The position numbers were made by a program, and so were the translations under genes. Positions 217-10,438 of a stretch of 11,499 nucleotides of DNA are shown here, piece by piece. The notes under the pieces were generated by a model, which was given only the letters and a program-made list of their open reading frames with translations, had not been told where the DNA came from and did no database searches. Source of the stretch: Actinomycetota bacterium (lineage in GTDB: Bacteria > Actinomycetota > Thermoleophilia > Gaiellales > Gaiellaceae). Location of the stretch: positions 1 through 11,499 of the forward strand of contig VGCB01000027.1 of NCBI GenBank assembly GCA_016870235.1, written 5' to 3'. Every line of letters starts with the position of its first letter. Position 1 is the first letter of the stretch.

Positions 217-1371
217 ATGCCGCAGCCCGCCCCGCACACGACCGCGACGATCGCAGCGGAGCTCGACCGGGCGCGCCTGCTCACCCACGAGCTGCTGGCT
301 CCCCTCGACGACCAGGCCCTGACCGCCCAGGTGTCGCCGCTGCAGTCGCCGCTCGTCTGGGACTACGCCCACATCGCCTACCTCGAGGAGCTGTGGCTTC
401 TCCGCCGCGTCGGCGGTTCCGATCCGCTCGACGGCCGTTTCGACGACCTCTACGACGCGTTCGCGCACGCCCGGTCGGAGCGCGGCGGTCTGCCGATCCT
501 GCGGCCGGATCGCGCCCGCGCCTACGCCGCGGAGGTGCGCGGGCACGTCCACGACCTCCTCGAGCGCGTCGAGCTCGACGAGGGCGACCGGCTTCTTCGC
601 GACGGATTCGTGTTCGGCATGATCGCCCAGCACGAGCTCCAGCATCGAGAGACGATGCTGCAGACGCTCGGTCTCGGCTCGGAGCCCTACGAAGTAGCGC
701 CGGCAGTGGCTGTCCCCGCGTCCGGCGGCGTCGTCCGGGTCGACGGAGGCACGTTCAGGATGGGAGCCGACGGCGAGCCCTGGGCCTACGACAACGAGCT
801 GCGATCGCACGAGATCCGGCTCGAGGGCTTCGCGATCGACCGGTTCCCGGCGACGACCGGCGCCCTCGCCGCGTTCGTCGCCGACCGGGGCTACGAGACC
901 CGCTCCCTCTGGACCGAGGCAGGCTGGACGTGGCTCCAGGAGGAAGGAGCGGGAGCACCGCTCGGTTGGGTGCGCGACCAGGGAGGCTGGGCGCGCTGCC
1001 GGTTCGGCCGGCTCGAGCCGCTCGACCCCGACGCCGCCGCCGAGCACCTGAGCCACCACGAGGCCGATGCGTACGCGCGCTGGGCCGGCGGTCGACTTCC
1101 GACCGAGGCCGAGTGGGAGCGGGCGGCACCCCTCCTCGACGGCGTCGGGGCGACGTGGGAGTGGACGTCCTCGACGTTCGGGCCGTATCCCGGCTTCGAG
1201 GCGTTCCCCTACCGGGAATACTCGGAGGTGTTCTTCGGCGACGACTACCGGGTGCTGCGGGGCTCGTCCTGGGCGACCGACTCGCTCGTGGCTCGCCCGA
1301 CGTTCCGTAACTGGGACTACCCGCAGCGACGCCAGATCTTCGCCGGGGTTAGGGTGGCACATGACGTGTGA
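217..1371 (+). CDS. egtB: Ergothioneine biosynthesis protein EgtB (iron-dependent sulfoxide synthase)
   Basis: The 384-residue product should join a cysteine-containing thiol to C2 of the hercynine imidazole ring with oxygen, giving the sulfoxide precursor of ergothioneine in the cytosol. Residues 10-155 form the DinB-like four-helix domain. The three expected iron-binding histidines are visible: H52 in WDYAH, then H139 and H143 in HELQHRE. Residues about 168-384 form the formylglycine-generating-enzyme-like (FGE-sulfatase) domain, with GGTFRMG (177-183), RLPTEAEWE (293-301), WEWTS (314-318), VLRGSSWA (346-353) and the C-terminal RNWDYPQRRQIFAGVR. The stretch between RLPTEAEWE and WEWTS is only about 12 residues, shorter than I expect for FGE folds. 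ATG 217 is the first start in frame, with AGGA (210-213) only 3 nt upstream. The 3' end overlaps egtD by 11 bp, so the two are probably cotranscribed. Family assignment is firm; the thiol substrate (gamma-glutamylcysteine or cysteine) is not settled. Confidence 0.92.
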   Translation: MPQPAPHTTATIAAELDRARLLTHELLAPLDDQALTAQVSPLQSPLVWDYAHIAYLEELWLLRRVGGSDPLDGRFDDLYDAFAHARSERGGLPILRPDRARAYAAEVRGHVHDLLERVELDEGDRLLRDGFVFGMIAQHELQHRETMLQTLGLGSEPYEVAPAVAVPASGGVVRVDGGTFRMGADGEPWAYDNELRSHEIRLEGFAIDRFPATTGALAAFVADRGYETRSLWTEAGWTWLQEEGAGAPLGWVRDQGGWARCRFGRLEPLDPDAAAEHLSHHEADAYARWAGGRLPTEAEWERAAPLLDGVGATWEWTSSTFGPYPGFEAFPYREYSEVFFGDDYRVLRGSSWATDSLVARPTFRNWDYPQRRQIFAGVRVAHDV

Positions 1372-2353
1372 GACGGTGCCGCGGGTCCGGATCGACCGGG
1401 TGTTCGCCGACGACGACCGTCGCTCTGCACTGCACGACGAGACGTTCTGGAGCCTTCGCGAGACCCCGAAGCAGCTGTCGCCGAAGTGGCTCTACGACCA
1501 CGAGGGGTCGCTGCTCTTCGACCGGATCACACGACTGCCCGAGTACTACCCGTTCCGAGCGGAGCGGTCGATCATCCTCGAGCGCGCCGCCGAGATCGCC
1601 GGGGCGACGGCCGCGGAGACGCTCGTCGAGCTGGGCTCGGGCACCTCCGAGAAGACGCGGCTCCTTCTCGATGCGCTCGTCGCCGCCGGCACGCTGAGGC
1701 GGTTCGTGCCGCTCGACGTCAGCGAGGAGATCCTCCGGTCGAGCGCCGCGGCCATCGCCGAGCGGTATCCGGAGCTCGCGGTGCACGCCATCGTCGGCGA
1801 CTTCGAGCGGCACCTGGCCGCCATCCCGCCTGGGCGGAACCGGCTTGTGGCCTTCCTCGGGTCGACGATCGGCAACCTCCACCCGGAAGGACGCTTGCGG
1901 TTCCTCGCCCGCGTCGCCGCGATTCTCGACGAGGGCGACACGCTGCTCCTCGGAGTCGACCTCGTCAAGCCTGCCGACCGTCTCCGCGCCGCCTACGACG
2001 ACGCCCTGGGCCTCACCGAGCGGTTCATCCGCAATGGACTTACGGCTGTCGATCGCGAGCTCGGCTCGTCGTTCTCGTCTGCCCCGCTCGACTACGAGGC
2101 GACCTGGGATCCGGTGCGCTCCTGGATGGACATCTCGTTCCGGGCCCGCGAGGCGATCCGGATCCCGGTGCCCGTCCTCGAGGTCGAGGTCGAGCTGGCG
2201 GCGGATGAGCAGCTACGGATGGAGGTGAGCACGAAGTTCACGCGGGCCGCCGTCGAAGAGGAGCTCACCGCCGCCGGTCTGCGGCCGACTGCATGGTGGA
2301 CGGACGGGCCCGGCGACTTCGCGCTCTGTCTCGCCGTCCCCGCCGCAGGCTGA
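1361..2353 (+). CDS. egtD: Histidine N-alpha-methyltransferase EgtD
   Basis: This SAM-dependent enzyme trimethylates L-histidine to hercynine, the first step of ergothioneine synthesis. The 330-residue length is typical. The SAM site is visible as ELGSGTSEKTR (90-100), D119 in PLDVS and D147 in GDF. The histidine pocket is complete: Y45 in KWLYD, Y62 in LPEYYP, N172 in GSTIGN, and E288 and S290 in MEVSTKF. These match Mycobacterium smegmatis EgtD Y39, Y56, N166, E282 and S284 with a constant offset of six, a strong sign of conserved function. The frame is open far upstream, but ATG 1361 is chosen because family homology begins just after it and because it gives the usual overlap with the egtB stop. 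GGGTGG-like sequence precedes it. EgtD feeds EgtB directly, so the pair supplies the core of the pathway. Confidence 0.95.
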   Translation: MTCETVPRVRIDRVFADDDRRSALHDETFWSLRETPKQLSPKWLYDHEGSLLFDRITRLPEYYPFRAERSIILERAAEIAGATAAETLVELGSGTSEKTRLLLDALVAAGTLRRFVPLDVSEEILRSSAAAIAERYPELAVHAIVGDFERHLAAIPPGRNRLVAFLGSTIGNLHPEGRLRFLARVAAILDEGDTLLLGVDLVKPADRLRAAYDDALGLTERFIRNGLTAVDRELGSSFSSAPLDYEATWDPVRSWMDISFRAREAIRIPVPVLEVEVELAADEQLRMEVSTKFTRAAVEEELTAAGLRPTAWWTDGPGDFALCLAVPAAG

Positions 2354-7241: not shown

Positions 7242-7739
7242 TCAGCCGAGCAGACCTGCCTTCTTGAGAGCGTCGGCGACGCTCTTGGGGACGATCACCT
7301 TGTCGATCGCGTGCACGACGCCGTTGGACGCGGCGATGTCGGCGCGCCTGACGATGGCGCGGTTGAGGCCGGCGGAGTCGGCGAGCTGGAGCTTGCCGCC
7401 CTTGATCGAGAGTGCGATCTGCCCGTTGGCGTTCTTGCCGAGAAGAGTCGGCACCTTGCTGCCCTGCTCGGCGGCGGCGATCGCGTCGGCCGCGACGACC
7501 TTGGAGCCCAGCACGTGGTACTGAAGCACCTGGACGAGCAGCTTCTTGTTCTTCGGATCCGTCAGCGCGGCGGTCACACCGGGCACCGCCTTCTCGAGCG
7601 CGGCAAACGCGTAGTTCCGCGGTGCGAAGACGGTCAGCTGCGCATCGGGGCTCCCGAGCGCACCGACCAGGCCCGCGGCCTGGACCAGCGAGACGAGCGT
7701 GGAGAAGTTCTTGTTGCCGGCGGCGACCTCGACGATCGA
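7242..7739 (-). repeat. FAS1-domain duplicate, copy A
   Basis: The second FAS1 domain of the long gene aligns without gaps to the single-domain gene at a fixed offset of 1198 bp. The stretch 7513-7597 shows only about four differences from 8711-8795. At protein level, the segment from LEKAVPGVTAALTD through QVLQYHV is identical in both. Confidence 0.8.
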
Positions 7740-8330
7740 GGGGCCCTTGACAAGGCCGGCCTTCTGGAGCGCGCTGACGAGGCTCTTCGGGACGAGGACG
7801 GTATCGATGACGTGAATGACGCCGTTGCTCGCGGCGACGTCCGCGGTTGTCACGATCGCCTTCGAGAAGCCGGCCGAATCGGTGATCTGGATGCTCGAGC
7901 CCGAGAGCGCGAGCGCCAGCTGGCCGTTCGCGTCGCCGCCGAGCAACGTCGGCACCTTCGACCCGGCCCGGGCCGCATCGACCGCAGCAGGCGACTTGAT
8001 CTCGCTCCCGAGGACGTGGTGCTTGAGCACCTGCTCGAGCAGCGGCTTGTTCGCGGGATCGGTGAGAGCCTTGGTGACGCCGGGAACGGCGGCCTCGAGC
8101 TTCGTGAACGCGTCGTTCGTCGGCGCGAACACGGTGAGCTTCGCGTTGGCGTTGGAGAGGGCGCCGGCGAGACCGGCGGACTGGACGAGCGACACGAGCG
8201 TCGAGAAGCTCGGGTTGCCCGCGGCGACGTCGACGATGGTGCCACCCGCCTGCGGGCGGGCACTCGCACTGACGGCGACTGCGAGGACGGCGACGAGAGC
8301 CGCCGCGAGAACGGCAATACGGGTCTTCAC
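7242..8330 (-). CDS. Secreted protein with two fasciclin (FAS1) domains
   Basis: The 362-residue product has a Sec signal peptide (MKTR then a hydrophobic run to about residue 20, with likely cleavage after SASA at 24) and no lipobox cysteine, so it should be secreted rather than lipid-anchored. FAS1 domain 1 covers about 31-194 (LTVFAPTNDAF as H1, HHVLG in the YH position, VIHVIDTVLVP as H2). Domain 2 covers about 197-361 (LTVFAPRNYAF, YHVLG, VVHAIDKVIVP). FAS1 domains mediate adhesion or protein and carbohydrate contacts; the ligand here is unknown. GTG 8330 is chosen because AAGGAG (minus strand, 8343-8338) sits 7 nt upstream and the signal peptide follows at once. It lies 109 bp downstream of a single-FAS1 gene in the same direction and may be read from the same promoter. 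Relatives MPT70/MPT83 of M. tuberculosis are controlled by SigK. Confidence 0.93.
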   Translation of the reverse strand: MKTRIAVLAAALVAVLAVAVSASARPQAGGTIVDVAAGNPSFSTLVSLVQSAGLAGALSNANAKLTVFAPTNDAFTKLEAAVPGVTKALTDPANKPLLEQVLKHHVLGSEIKSPAAVDAARAGSKVPTLLGGDANGQLALALSGSSIQITDSAGFSKAIVTTADVAASNGVIHVIDTVLVPKSLVSALQKAGLVKGPSIVEVAAGNKNFSTLVSLVQAAGLVGALGSPDAQLTVFAPRNYAFAALEKAVPGVTAALTDPKNKKLLVQVLQYHVLGSKVVAADAIAAAEQGSKVPTLLGKNANGQIALSIKGGKLQLADSAGLNRAIVRRADIAASNGVVHAIDKVIVPKSVADALKKAGLLG

Positions 8331-8358
8331 TGGAGATCTCCTTCGCGAGGGGGTGTGT

Positions 8359-8385
8359 GGCGGGAGGGCGCACGGCCCTCCCGCC
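8359..8385 (-). terminator. GC-rich hairpin between the two fasciclin genes
   Basis: GGCGGGAGGGC (8359-8369) and GCCCTCCCGCC (8375-8385) form a perfect 11-bp stem with a 5-nt loop, 54 bp after the stop of the upstream single-FAS1 gene and 28 bp before the start of the two-domain gene. It may terminate the first transcript or act as a leaky terminator or processing stem inside a two-gene operon. It shares the GGCGGGAGG core with the hairpin at 7201-7233. Confidence 0.6.
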
Positions 8386-8439
8386 CTGCCGGGCCGACCT
8401 GCCGCCGAGGCGTGAGGTACTCCGACGACTGCGCCCCGG

Positions 8440-8937
8440 TCAGCTGATCAGGCCAGCCTTCTTGAGCGCGGCCGCGATGCTCTGGGGCACGATCACCTTG
8501 TCGATGACGTGAACGACGCCGTTCGACGCGGCGAGGTCGGTCTTCGTCACGGTCGCCATGTTGAGCCCGGCGGAGTCCGCGATCATGACCTTGCCACCCT
8601 TGATCGAGAGCCCGATCTGCCCGTTCATGTTCTTGCCGAGAAGCGTCGGGACCTTCGCTCCCTTCTTGGCAGCGGCGACCGCGTCCTTCGCCATCACGGT
8701 GGAACCGACGACGTGGTACTGAAGCACCTGAACGAGCAGCTTCTTGTTCTTCGGATCCGTCAGCGCGGCGGTCACGCCGGGGACGGCCTTCTCGAGGCTC
8801 TTGAACGCGGCGTTCGTGGGAGCGAAGACGGTGAGCTTCGCCTTGCCGTCGGAGAGCGCCCCGACGAGCCCGGCGGTCTGCACGAGCGAGACGAGCGTCG
8901 AGAAGCTCTTGTTCCCGGCGGCGATGTCGACGATCGT
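8440..8937 (-). repeat. FAS1-domain duplicate, copy B
   Basis: Partner of 7239-7739 at a constant 1198-bp offset with no gaps, down to both stop codons. Similarity is uneven: the middle of the domain is almost identical in DNA, and the edges differ more, as expected for an older duplication with possible local gene conversion. Confidence 0.8.
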
Positions 8938-9027
8938 TCCCTCTGCAGCCGGACGGGCGCCCGCGGTGCCTGCGACGGCGGCGCCCGCGACGGCGGTCAC
9001 GGCCAGTAGTGCGAGTAGCTTCCTCAT
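8440..9027 (-). CDS. Secreted single-domain fasciclin (FAS1) protein, MPT70-like
   Basis: The 195-residue product has a signal peptide (MRKLLALLAVTAVAGAAVAG, likely cut after AGA near residue 24) and one FAS1 domain from about residue 30 to 194. H1 is LTVFAPTNAAF, the YH motif is QYHVVG, and H2 is VVHVIDKVIVP. There is no lipobox cysteine. Size and layout match the secreted mycobacterial protein MPT70 (one FAS1 domain behind a signal peptide). ATG 9027 has a near-perfect ribosome binding site, AAAGGAGG (minus strand, 9040-9033), 5 nt away. The gene is divergent from the ECF sigma factor across 119 bp, and a candidate sigma-specific promoter ends about 30 nt upstream of the start. It is likely under control of that sigma factor and cotranscribed at least partly with the two-domain gene downstream. 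Confidence 0.94.
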   Translation of the reverse strand: MRKLLALLAVTAVAGAAVAGTAGARPAAEGTIVDIAAGNKSFSTLVSLVQTAGLVGALSDGKAKLTVFAPTNAAFKSLEKAVPGVTAALTDPKNKKLLVQVLQYHVVGSTVMAKDAVAAAKKGAKVPTLLGKNMNGQIGLSIKGGKVMIADSAGLNMATVTKTDLAASNGVVHVIDKVIVPQSIAAALKKAGLIS

Positions 9028-9057
9028 CTTGTCCTCCTTTTGTCGATGTTTCTGCTT

Positions 9058-9084
9058 CTACGGAGCCACCGCGAGAGCGGATGA
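9058..9084 (-). promoter_or_regulatory. Candidate SigK-like promoter for the fasciclin genes
   Basis: On the minus strand TCATCC (9084-9079), a 15-nt spacer, then CCGTAG (9063-9058). The -35 matches 5 of 6 and the -10 matches 4 of 6 positions of the mycobacterial SigK consensus as I recall it (CCATCC and CCGAAT). The -10 ends about 30 nt before ATG 9027, leaving room for the ribosome binding site. Spacer length equals that of the sigma gene's own candidate promoter. Confidence 0.5.
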
Positions 9085-9100
9085 CGAACTGGGAGAAGAA

Positions 9101-9127
9101 GCATCCGTCGACCATCGGGAGCCGAAT
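9101..9127 (+). promoter_or_regulatory. Candidate autoregulatory promoter of the ECF sigma gene
   Basis: GCATCC (9101-9106), a 15-nt spacer, then CCGAAT (9122-9127). The -10 is identical to the recalled SigK consensus and the -35 differs by one base. The start codon at 9147 lies 20 nt past the -10, so the leader is short, with GGTGG (9135-9139) as ribosome binding site. It also supports 9147 over the more upstream in-frame starts, which would lie before this promoter. Confidence 0.58.
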
Positions 9128-9146
9128 CAGTTACGGTGGAAAGCGC

Positions 9147-9725
9147 ATGCGAGACCGACTGGAAGGAGCGTCCGACACGGCGCTCGTCCTCGCTGTCGCG
9201 GGTCGCAGCGATGCCGCTCTCCGGGAGCTCCATCAGCGACACGCAGGAGCGCTCGTGGGGCTTTCCCGACGCGTCACCGGCAACGCCGACCTTGGCGCGG
9301 AGGTGGTGCAAGAGGTCTTCGTCCGCCTCTGGGAGACGCCCTCGCGCTTCGATCCCGACCGCGGCTCGCTTCGCTCCTTCCTTCTCGCTGACGTCCACGG
9401 CCGCGCCGTCGACCTCGTCCGCGCCGAGACCGCGCGCCGGCGCCGTGAGGAGCGCGACCAGGTGGAGCAGATGAGGATCGAGCTCGATACCCCAGAGGAC
9501 GAGGTGGTCGCGATGGCGGCGTCGGCAGAGTTGCGTGACGCGCTCGCATGCCTGGCCGCGGACGAGCGGCGACCGATCGAGCTGGCGTACTTCGGCGGGC
9601 ACTCCTACCGCGAGGTCGCGGCGATCCTCGGAGAGCCGGAGGGCACGATCAAGAGCCGCATCCGCCGCGGCCTGACCCGCCTTCGCGCGTCGCTCGCGAT
9701 GCCGGAGCACAGGGTGGCCGGATGA
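9147..9725 (+). CDS. ECF RNA polymerase sigma factor, SigK-like (ECF19 type)
   Basis: The 192-residue protein has only sigma regions 2 and 4. Region 2 spans about 22-98, with ELHQRHAGALVGLSRRVTG, the acidic core-binding stretch AEVVQEVFVRLWETPSRFDPDRGSLRSFLLADVHGRAVDLVR (45-92) and a basic tail ETARRRREE. Region 4 spans about 128-183, with the helix-turn-helix HSYREVAAILGEPEGTIKSRIRRGLTRLR, which should read the -35 box. ATG 9147 is preferred over in-frame ATG 9081 and the 9009 start because homology begins here, GGTGG precedes it, and a matching promoter lies just upstream. It is translationally coupled (ATGA) to an RskA-like anti-sigma factor and is divergent from FAS1 genes, the known SigK target family in mycobacteria. 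A single cysteine, C135, is present at the start of region 4; no second C-terminal cysteine is seen. SigK-type assignment rests on partner and targets; subgroup search was not possible. Confidence 0.93.
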   Translation: MRDRLEGASDTALVLAVAGRSDAALRELHQRHAGALVGLSRRVTGNADLGAEVVQEVFVRLWETPSRFDPDRGSLRSFLLADVHGRAVDLVRAETARRRREERDQVEQMRIELDTPEDEVVAMAASAELRDALACLAADERRPIELAYFGGHSYREVAAILGEPEGTIKSRIRRGLTRLRASLAMPEHRVAG

Positions 9726-10438
9726 CGACGCTGGCCCACGAGGAGATGCAGGAGCTGCTCGGCGCCTATGCTCTCGATGCTGTCGACGGATCCGAGCGAC
9801 GAGCGTTCGAGCAGCATCTCGGTGATTGCGCCGACTGCCGCGACGAGGTCGCGCGTCATCGTGAGACGCTCGCGCTCCTCGCGATCGACGAGGACGTGCC
9901 GGAGGCGATCTGGGAGGACATCGCCACGCGGATCGCGATGCCGCGCGCCGACGAGTCCGCACGCCTCGAGCACGGGGGCGCGAGGGTCATCCGCTTCCCT
10001 CTCCGGCGTGTCACCGCCTGGGTCGCCCCGGCCGCTGCTGCGGCAGCCGCCGTCGCGATCACCCTCGGCGTCACCGGCGGCGACGACCTCGGGAAGCCCG
10101 TGCACGACGCCGCCGTCGAGTCCCTCTCGCAGGAGGCCGACGTCGCGGGCACGGTTGCGCTGTACCGGCCCGACCAGCCGAACGGCCGGATCGTGATCGA
10201 CCTCCGCAACGTCCCGCCGCCGCCCGCCGGGCACCACTACGAGGTCTGGATCCTGCGGCCCGGCGCCGACGTCGAGATGGAGGCGATCGGCGCCTTCACG
10301 CCCCACAACGGGGTCGCGCGGATCGAGCTGTCGCTTCCGGGCCCGGGCGAGTACGTCGCCCTCGACATCTCGGTCGAGGAGAACGGCGGCCCGCCCGAGC
10401 ACTCGGGGACGAGCCTGGCCCGGGCGGTCCTGCAGTAG
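9722..10438 (+). CDS. Zinc-type membrane anti-sigma factor, RskA-like
   Basis: The 238-residue protein should hold the upstream sigma factor inactive at the membrane. Residues 1-55 form the cytoplasmic zinc-associated anti-sigma domain (HEEMQELLGAYALDAVDG, then H32-x3-C36-x2-C39). One membrane helix runs from about 98 to 118 (an alanine-rich run ending VAITLGVTG). Residues about 125-238 form the extracytoplasmic RskA-type domain (GTVALYRPDQPNGRIVIDL, HHYEVWILRPG, PPEHSGTSLARAVLQ), presumed sensor side. ATG 9722 overlaps the sigma stop by 4 bp, the usual coupling that keeps sigma and anti-sigma in balance. In M. tuberculosis RskA is cut by regulated intramembrane proteolysis (Rip1); whether that holds here cannot be seen. 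The stop is followed by a strong hairpin at 10448-10474. Confidence 0.93.
   Translation: MTTLAHEEMQELLGAYALDAVDGSERRAFEQHLGDCADCRDEVARHRETLALLAIDEDVPEAIWEDIATRIAMPRADESARLEHGGARVIRFPLRRVTAWVAPAAAAAAAVAITLGVTGGDDLGKPVHDAAVESLSQEADVAGTVALYRPDQPNGRIVIDLRNVPPPPAGHHYEVWILRPGADVEMEAIGAFTPHNGVARIELSLPGPGEYVALDISVEENGGPPEHSGTSLARAVLQ

What the first reader, a model, noticed from the sequence alone, without database searches (positions are those of the whole stretch)
7242..10438. A sigma / RskA-like anti-sigma / FAS1 module outside Mycobacterium
Seen: an ECF sigma gene coupled to an RskA-like membrane anti-sigma gene, directly divergent from two secreted FAS1 genes. Known: in M. tuberculosis, SigK with anti-sigma RskA controls the FAS1 proteins MPT70 and MPT83. 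The same three families sit together here, apparently in a non-mycobacterial actinobacterium. Inference: this is an ancient self-contained envelope-response unit in which the regulator and its effectors stayed linked.
Basis: partly seen in the sequence, partly recalled or inferred. Interest (0 to 1): 0.75.

Follow-up and report, generated by a model that had tools for sequence, protein, structure and literature searches.

The report
Chimeric sigma switch beside FAS1 genes
An uncultured actinobacterium carries a membrane-controlled gene switch beside two genes for secreted FAS1 (fasciclin) proteins; the arrangement is of a known kind, but here the switch looks assembled from two different ancestors, its outer sensing part sharing a history with the FAS1 genes.

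Summary
Confirmed: two secreted FAS1 genes diverge from an ECF sigma gene overlapping a membrane anti-sigma gene. A sigK-rskA-mpt83 (FAS1) cassette outside Mycobacterium is already in print (PMC7509140). The window sigma is sister to SigK but below the SigK family cut-off (144 of 226 bits) and lacks its two cysteines. Of 80 fetched relatives of the sigma, 1 has adjacent FAS1. In the class best matching the window, 14 of 25 FAS1-bearing genomes have an ECF sigma gene beside FAS1, of other ECF lineages. The anti-sigma is chimeric: its zinc-type cytoplasmic domain resembles the sigma relatives' (44% against 17%), its SOD-like outer domain a FAS1-linked type (52% against 16%), with three histidines found in that type and not in the canonical one. 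Sigma and outer domain conflict in topology tests (p-AU 1.2e-5 and 7.5e-5). Both divergent genes carry a CATCC-N15-CCGWA promoter like that of the sigma's relatives; in the other lineage FAS1 carries that lineage's TGATCC-N16-CGTA (9 of 9 loci). Best reading: an autoregulated switch in which a FAS1-linked input half was joined to a SigK-like output half. FAS1 as the sensed partner is testable, not shown.

The parts
7242..8330 (-). Secreted protein with two FAS1 domains (362 aa), signal peptide by eye, no lipobox cysteine
   Evidence: Pfam PF02469 181.8 bits; N-terminus seen
8440..9027 (-). Secreted protein with one FAS1 domain (195 aa), signal peptide by eye, no lipobox cysteine
   Evidence: Pfam PF02469 100.8 bits
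9057..9083 (-). Candidate promoter of the FAS1 genes: -35 CATCC (9083-9079), 15 bases, -10 CCGTAGA (9063-9057)
   Evidence: on a pattern prompted by the window and recovered by an unprompted dyad count in relatives; sequence
9102..9128 (+). Candidate promoter of the sigma operon: -35 CATCC (9102-9106), 15 bases, -10 CCGAATC (9122-9128)
9147..9725 (+). ECF sigma factor, SigK-like (192 aa)
   Evidence: tree
9722..9955 (+). Anti-sigma, cytoplasmic sigma-binding domain (residues 1-78) with zinc-type motif H6, H32-x3-C36-x2-C39
   Evidence: Pfam zf-HC2, RskA_N; residues counted
10025..10075 (+). Anti-sigma, predicted membrane helix (residues 102-118)
   Evidence: AlphaFold2 model, lower confidence here
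10091..10438 (+). Anti-sigma, outer sensor domain (RskA_C, residues 124-238, stop included in the coordinates) with H171, H172 and H227
   Evidence: Pfam RskA_C, model, fold, residues

Best explanation
A self-contained, autoregulated envelope switch. At rest the zinc-type cytoplasmic domain of the single-pass membrane anti-sigma holds the SigK-like sigma. A signal outside the membrane, read by the SOD-like RskA_C sensor domain, frees sigma, presumably through proteolysis of the anti-sigma as for RskA. Sigma then transcribes from two back-to-back promoters of one type: its own operon and the secreted FAS1 genes. The module is an evolutionary chimera: the output half (sigma plus cytoplasmic anti-sigma domain) is of the SigK/Acidimicrobiia kind, the input half (sensor domain) and the FAS1 genes are of a lineage in which FAS1 usually sits beside an RpoE-like ECF, and the -35 element before FAS1 fits the local sigma. 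Shown by sequence: gene order, domains, conflicting histories of sigma and sensor, promoter-like elements. Inferred: inhibition, release, promoter use, direction of the exchange, the signal.
For: Gene order and domains. Sigma groups with the Acidimicrobiia-type relatives (support 100), that group beside SigK + L163 (96); placing it with the RpoE-like type B rejected, p-AU 1.2e-5. Window cytoplasmic domain hits 79 of 80 relatives' loci, its sensor 0 of 80. Median identity: cytoplasmic 44% to relatives (14), 17% to type B (11); sensor 16% and 52%. Sensor at the sigma's tree position rejected, p-AU 7.5e-5; window group + type B supported 97 in the sensor tree. H32, C36, C39 in 21 of 21 full-length homologues, 14 of 14 cytoplasmic-type, 0 of 22 type B; H172, H227 in 21 of 21, 0 of 14, 22 of 22. 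FAS1 tree puts the window on the type B side of a 97% split. FAS1 beside ECF sigma in 14 of 25 genomes. Dyad CATCC-N17-CGAA upstream of 34 of 80 sigma genes, 2 on the reverse strand; the window has both promoters face to face in the 119-base gap. TGATCC-N16-CGTA once per type B locus, before FAS1, 9 of 9; 4 in 1.68 Mb of control strand; the same as the published RpoE promoter.
Against: No expression or binding data. FAS1 is beside the pair in 1 of 80 relatives of the sigma. Looser topology tests of the sensor were not significant (p-AU 0.0501; 0.13). The short cytoplasmic domain does not settle its own tree: joining type B is not rejected (0.075) and the sigma's exact position is (0.017). Sensor-type genes without FAS1 exist: 3 of 12 strong and 14 of 17 weak matches, 4 of these 14 cut by a contig end before a sigma gene. 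The window's promoter spacing is one base shorter than the commonest in its relatives. Several type B loci are close relatives, so 9 of 9 is not nine independent cases. The class of the window is inferred.
Confidence: 0.7

Rival explanations
1. An ancient sigK-rskA-FAS1 cassette inherited as one block; the sensor domain only changed fast and the resemblance to the FAS1-linked type arose within the block.
For: The sigma is sister to SigK. L163, whose sigma passes the SigK cut-off (244 of 226 bits), has FAS1 beside it, and so do L161 and L073, the deepest branch of the window sigma's group. The cytoplasmic-domain tree is undecided.
Against: Sigma and sensor topologies conflict; the window FAS1 falls across a 97% split from the FAS1 of L161, L073 and L163, which carry a lipobox-like cysteine the window FAS1 lacks (by eye); 79 of 80 relatives have no FAS1 beside the pair.
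Confidence: 0.15
2. The sensor reads a metal or an oxidant rather than FAS1, and FAS1 is only one of several secreted outputs of such switches.
Against: A shared fold shows no function; Foldseek had no match at E 1e-3; metal binding and closeness of the histidines were not tested; in the class 9 of 12 strong sensor matches do have FAS1 beside sigma.
Confidence: 0.35
3. FAS1 and the sigma pair are neighbours by chance or for reasons other than regulation.
For: No expression data; the close relatives of the sigma mostly lack adjacent FAS1.
Against: 14 of 25 adjacency at 105-239 bp with no other detected ECF sigma in 224 kb of flank; lineage-matched promoter elements before FAS1.
Confidence: 0.06

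Closest known systems
mpt83-sigK-rskA cassette (M. tuberculosis SigK/RskA regulon, Yersinia enterocolitica, Rhodococcus; PMC7509140)
   Same: SigK-like ECF sigma, RskA-like membrane anti-sigma in one operon, FAS1 gene adjacent, candidate sigma site before FAS1
   Different: Sigma below the SigK family cut-off and without the two cysteines; zinc-type motif in the anti-sigma; outer domain of another RskA_C type; FAS1 without lipobox; FAS1 divergent and present as two genes
RpoE-ChrR (ECF11) of Rhodobacter sphaeroides
   Same: The sister module (type B) has an RpoE-grouping sigma (support 91) and the RpoE-type promoter TGATCC-N16-CGTA before FAS1; a FAS1 gene is in the R. sphaeroides photooxidative stress table
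   Different: The window's own sigma is not of this lineage and its -35 is CATCC; the type B anti-sigma outer domain is RskA_C-like; I did not compare it with ChrR
RskA-type anti-sigmas of Acidimicrobiia relatives (loci L001-L080)
   Same: Same sigma clade and same kind of cytoplasmic domain
   Different: Canonical outer domain (TYQLW type), FAS1 adjacent in 1 of 80

Membership tests
SigK (NCBIfam PRK09646 / NF007228) | Score above the curated cut-off of 226 bits | tested here: not met
   144.4 bits, best family but below cut-off; L163 as yardstick 244 bits
SigK (ECF18/ECF19 of PMC7509140) | Cysteines 133 and 183 (there 94% in ECF18, 56% in ECF19) | tested here: not met
   A132 and S182 align to them in the alignment (offset of 17 in the chain numbering inferred); figures
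ECF19 with AS19-1 anti-sigma | Anti-sigma helix motifs HTLAGAYALDAL and LDDERAAFERHL | tested here: inconclusive
   Window has HEEMQELLGAYALDAV and GSERRAFEQHL: similar by eye (motifs from PMC7406223); no ECF-group HMM was at hand
RskA anti-sigma | RskA_N and RskA_C domains above Pfam cut-off | tested here: met
   RskA_C 54.7 (cut-off 29.4), RskA_N 33.7 (27.0); also NCBIfam NF052375 anti-sigma factor 123.6 (100)
RskA anti-sigma | M. [quoted passage not shown]
   Window has H-x3-C-x2-C; present in 21 of 21 full-length homologues
mpt83-sigK-rskA cassette | FAS1 gene adjacent to the sigma/anti-sigma pair | tested here: met
mpt83-sigK-rskA cassette | Lipid-anchored FAS1, described as the ancestral form | tested here: not met
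   No lipobox cysteine by eye in either window FAS1; statement from PMC7509140
mpt83-sigK-rskA cassette | SigK binding site before FAS1 | tested here: inconclusive
   A CATCC-N15-CCGTAGA element is there; the published SigK consensus was not found in the library and is only recalled
mpt83-sigK-rskA cassette | Anti-sigma controls sigma and sigma drives FAS1 in cells | not testable with these tools
   Needs a reporter assay

The most novel reading that the evidence does not exclude
The secreted FAS1 protein, or what it binds, is what the anti-sigma's outer domain reads, possibly through a metal or oxidant at H171/H172/H227. Sensor plus FAS1 would then be an exchangeable input cartridge that evolution plugs onto different sigma/cytoplasmic-domain output cartridges, re-tuning only the -35 of the FAS1 promoter. 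That would offer a candidate for the unknown signal of SigK/RskA.
Probability: 0.22. Interest if true: 0.8.

Novelty: new variant of a known kind. Interest (0 to 1): 0.52.

Why it matters
The signal that starts the SigK/RskA cascade is unknown (PMC7509140, discussion read), and what bacterial FAS1 proteins do is unclear (my own knowledge). Here a sensor domain and its FAS1 neighbours appear to have changed sigma partner together, which points to sensor plus FAS1 as the functional unit and gives direct tests: sensor-FAS1 binding, metal content and promoter specificity. It is also a worked case of an anti-sigma factor joined anew at the membrane with a matching promoter change.

Tried and rejected
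Whole genome of the window: none held. Rfam: no match. Sigma search in the class of G121: 0 of 349 genomes at 1e-45; in a phylum sample 8 of 396 at 1e-40. So the exact chimeric type was not found in a held genome; beyond the window it is known here only from protein records. Contig lengths shared between hit lists (I entered the lengths of 23 of 120 sigma, 41 of 120 FAS1 and 21 of 120 anti-sigma hits listed) give 12 shared lengths, the window's own included; on short contigs (1743, 2868 and 3595 bases hold sigma and FAS1; 3759 holds FAS1 and anti-sigma) this implies closeness, on long ones it does not, and equal length is not proof of one contig.

The first sensor topology tests used constraints too loose to tell 'within' from 'next to' the relatives and were not significant; the specific one was. 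Type C promoters: only a partial dyad (CAACC-N17-CGTA, 4 of 7, and 3 of 7 on the reverse strand), not used. L163, L161 and L073 have no match to CATCC-N14..17-CCG[AT] before FAS1 or sigma. Foldseek: no match at E 1e-3; VIA-align ranked Cu,Zn superoxide dismutases first. Plasmid search with SigK: 407 records matched; none was opened. Literature: 'ECF19' with 'fasciclin' 0 papers; 'ECF sigma factor', 'fasciclin', 'anti-sigma' 3 papers, listing only; a search on anti-sigma domain swaps 0 papers. The library is open-access only, so this does not show absence from print.
Full report
Observation. Neighbours with Pfam hits (EgtB-like, amino-acid permease, saccharopine-dehydrogenase-like, epimerase, PNPOx-like, Bmp-like) look unrelated. 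No genome is held for the window. Relatives of its FAS1 and anti-sigma include records named Gaiellales bacterium (P0189; P0258), and its saccharopine-dehydrogenase-like protein is 80% and 77% identical to that of G121 and G185, against 71% or less in the rest of a 198-genome phylum sample except a 133-residue fragment at 74%.

What is known. PMC7509140 (outline, passages and sections 11 and 13 read) describes a mpt83-sigK-rskA cassette with a SigK site conserved even in Yersinia, and mentions Rhodococcus. So sigma, RskA and FAS1 together outside Mycobacterium is in print. That paper puts M. tuberculosis SigK in ECF18 and the Yersinia one in ECF19; PMC7406223 (passages) puts M. tuberculosis RskA in anti-sigma group AS19-1.

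The sigma. NCBIfam ranks SigK first but far below cut-off (144.4 of 226 bits); the nearest solved structure is SigK 4nqw. In a tree of 70 sequences it sits with the relatives, mostly Acidimicrobiia by record title (100), and that group is beside SigK + L163 (96). The SigK cysteines are A132 and S182 here. 80 of 80 have an anti-sigma by my HMM. 1 of 80 has FAS1 beside the pair (L073) and one more has FAS1 about 4 kb away (L080). 62 of 80 have at least 1 kb upstream and 2 kb downstream of sigma. FAS1 exists somewhere in 18 of 48 of these genomes by Pfam model, and in 3 of 10 others by protein search at 1e-10.

FAS1 linkage in the matching class. FAS1 at 1e-20: 25 of 249 genomes. With 3-11 kb fetched around each, 14 of 25 have an ECF sigma gene 105-239 bp from FAS1, none further away by my HMM: 9 in one direction with FAS1 first, 5 divergent (L140, L143, L150, L151, L153). 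These sigmas fall in at least two other lineages: type B with R. sphaeroides RpoE (91) and type C. In a phylum sample 9 of 246 genomes had FAS1 at that cut; 3 of the 9 have an adjacent sigma (L161, L163, L168). Of six further FAS1 loci fetched from genomes of the sigma's relatives (18 of 48 and 3 of 10 had FAS1), L173 has a sigma about 150 bp away and L172 about 700 bp.

The anti-sigma is chimeric. The homologue search scored 205 proteins, 120 listed. 21 are full-length: the window's own and 20 at 46-63% identity over 96-100%. Then 28 (P0262-P0289) match at 41-63%, 27 of them over only 40-63% of the query. The other 71 score much lower, some over short stretches at 45-66%, some over most of the length near 30%. 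Which half is shared is shown elsewhere: on fetched loci the window's cytoplasmic domain hits 79 of 80 relatives and its sensor 0 of 80 (two of the 80, L051 and L057, are cut before the outer domain). Median identities: cytoplasmic 44% to relatives (14 of the 80 used), 17% to type B (11); sensor 16% and 52%. Residues counted on an alignment of the window and 56 of the 120 listed homologues: H32, C36, C39 in 21 of 21 full-length, 0 of 22 sensor-only and 14 of 14 of the rest; H6 in 21, 0 and 10; H172 and H227 in 21, 22 and 0; H171 in 21, 21 and 0.

Topology tests. Sigma joined to type B: rejected (delta lnL 48.4, p-AU 1.2e-5). Sensor at the sigma's position, beside L006 and L017: rejected (109.1, 7.5e-5). 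In the sensor tree the window group plus type B has support 97, with type C 100. Against: looser sensor constraints were not rejected (0.0501; 0.13), and for the 72-column cytoplasmic domain the sigma's exact position is rejected (0.017) while joining type B is not (0.075), so its assignment rests on identity and the zinc residues. FAS1 tree of 73 domains, midpoint-rooted: window FAS1 lies on the type B side of a 97% split and its nearest directly sigma-linked FAS1 from the loci is L140; L161, L073, L163 are on the other side. So are three type C FAS1 and four unlinked FAS1 of the class, so the split is no clean class boundary. By eye the FAS1 of L148, L155, L212, L161, L073, L163 and L168, all on that other side, have a lipobox-like cysteine; those of the window and type B have not.

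Does FAS1 follow the sensor? Sensor search in the class: 29 of 249 genomes at 1e-7. Of 12 strong matches (1e-23 or better) 9 have FAS1 beside sigma; of 17 weak ones 3 do, and 4 of the other 14 end at a contig edge before a sigma gene. The strong exceptions G566, G554 and G185 form one sigma branch; the gene before sigma in L206 and L208 codes for another secreted-looking protein (by eye). So the link is strong, not exclusive.

Promoters. An unprompted dyad count upstream of 80 sigma genes (79 relatives and the window; one relative dropped for a short upstream stretch) put CATCC-N17-CGAA first: 34, and 2 on the reverse strand. The looser CATCC-N14..17-CCG[AT], prompted by the window, is in 42 of 80 (8 on the reverse strand) against 1.9 expected from genomic windows. 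The window has four such matches in 11.5 kb; two are in the 119-base gap, one facing each gene. Their spacing is one base shorter than the relatives' commonest. In type B, TGATCC-N16-CGTA occurs once per locus, just before FAS1, 9 of 9 (several loci closely related), against 4 in 1.68 Mb of control strand. It equals the published RpoE promoter TGATCC-N15-GCGTA (PMC5036791, passage; PMC4336711, passages). So FAS1 carries CATCC here and GATCC in type B, with the same distance to CGTA: a -35 matched to the local sigma lineage. This is the best evidence for direct control, still without an experiment.

Conclusion. A known kind of module in a new, chimeric variant: SigK-like output half, FAS1-linked input half. 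Control of FAS1 by the local sigma is likely, conflicting histories of sigma and sensor are well supported, and FAS1 as the sensed partner is an open, testable idea.

Noticed in passing
window 217-2353, plus strand: EgtB-like gene (DinB_2 + FGE-sulfatase) followed by what looks like EgtD, an ergothioneine pair; EgtD named from the translation only.
   Followed up: no
L208 2282-3610: A secreted repeat protein (recalled as DUF4397-like) lies directly before a sensor-type sigma in place of FAS1, a possible alternative partner of the same sensor.
   Followed up: partly
L100 57-2776: Two sigma/anti-sigma pairs of the window's sigma type in tandem.
   Followed up: no
anti-sigma outer domain, window 10091-10435: The RskA_C domain models as a Cu,Zn-superoxide-dismutase-like barrel.
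   Followed up: partly
PMC7074977 (passage): R. capsulatus RpoE/ChrR is reported to be closer to SigK/RskA than to R. sphaeroides RpoE/ChrR, and RSP_1409 (FAS1) has no homologue there: a possible parallel case of a replaced sigma pair.
   Followed up: no
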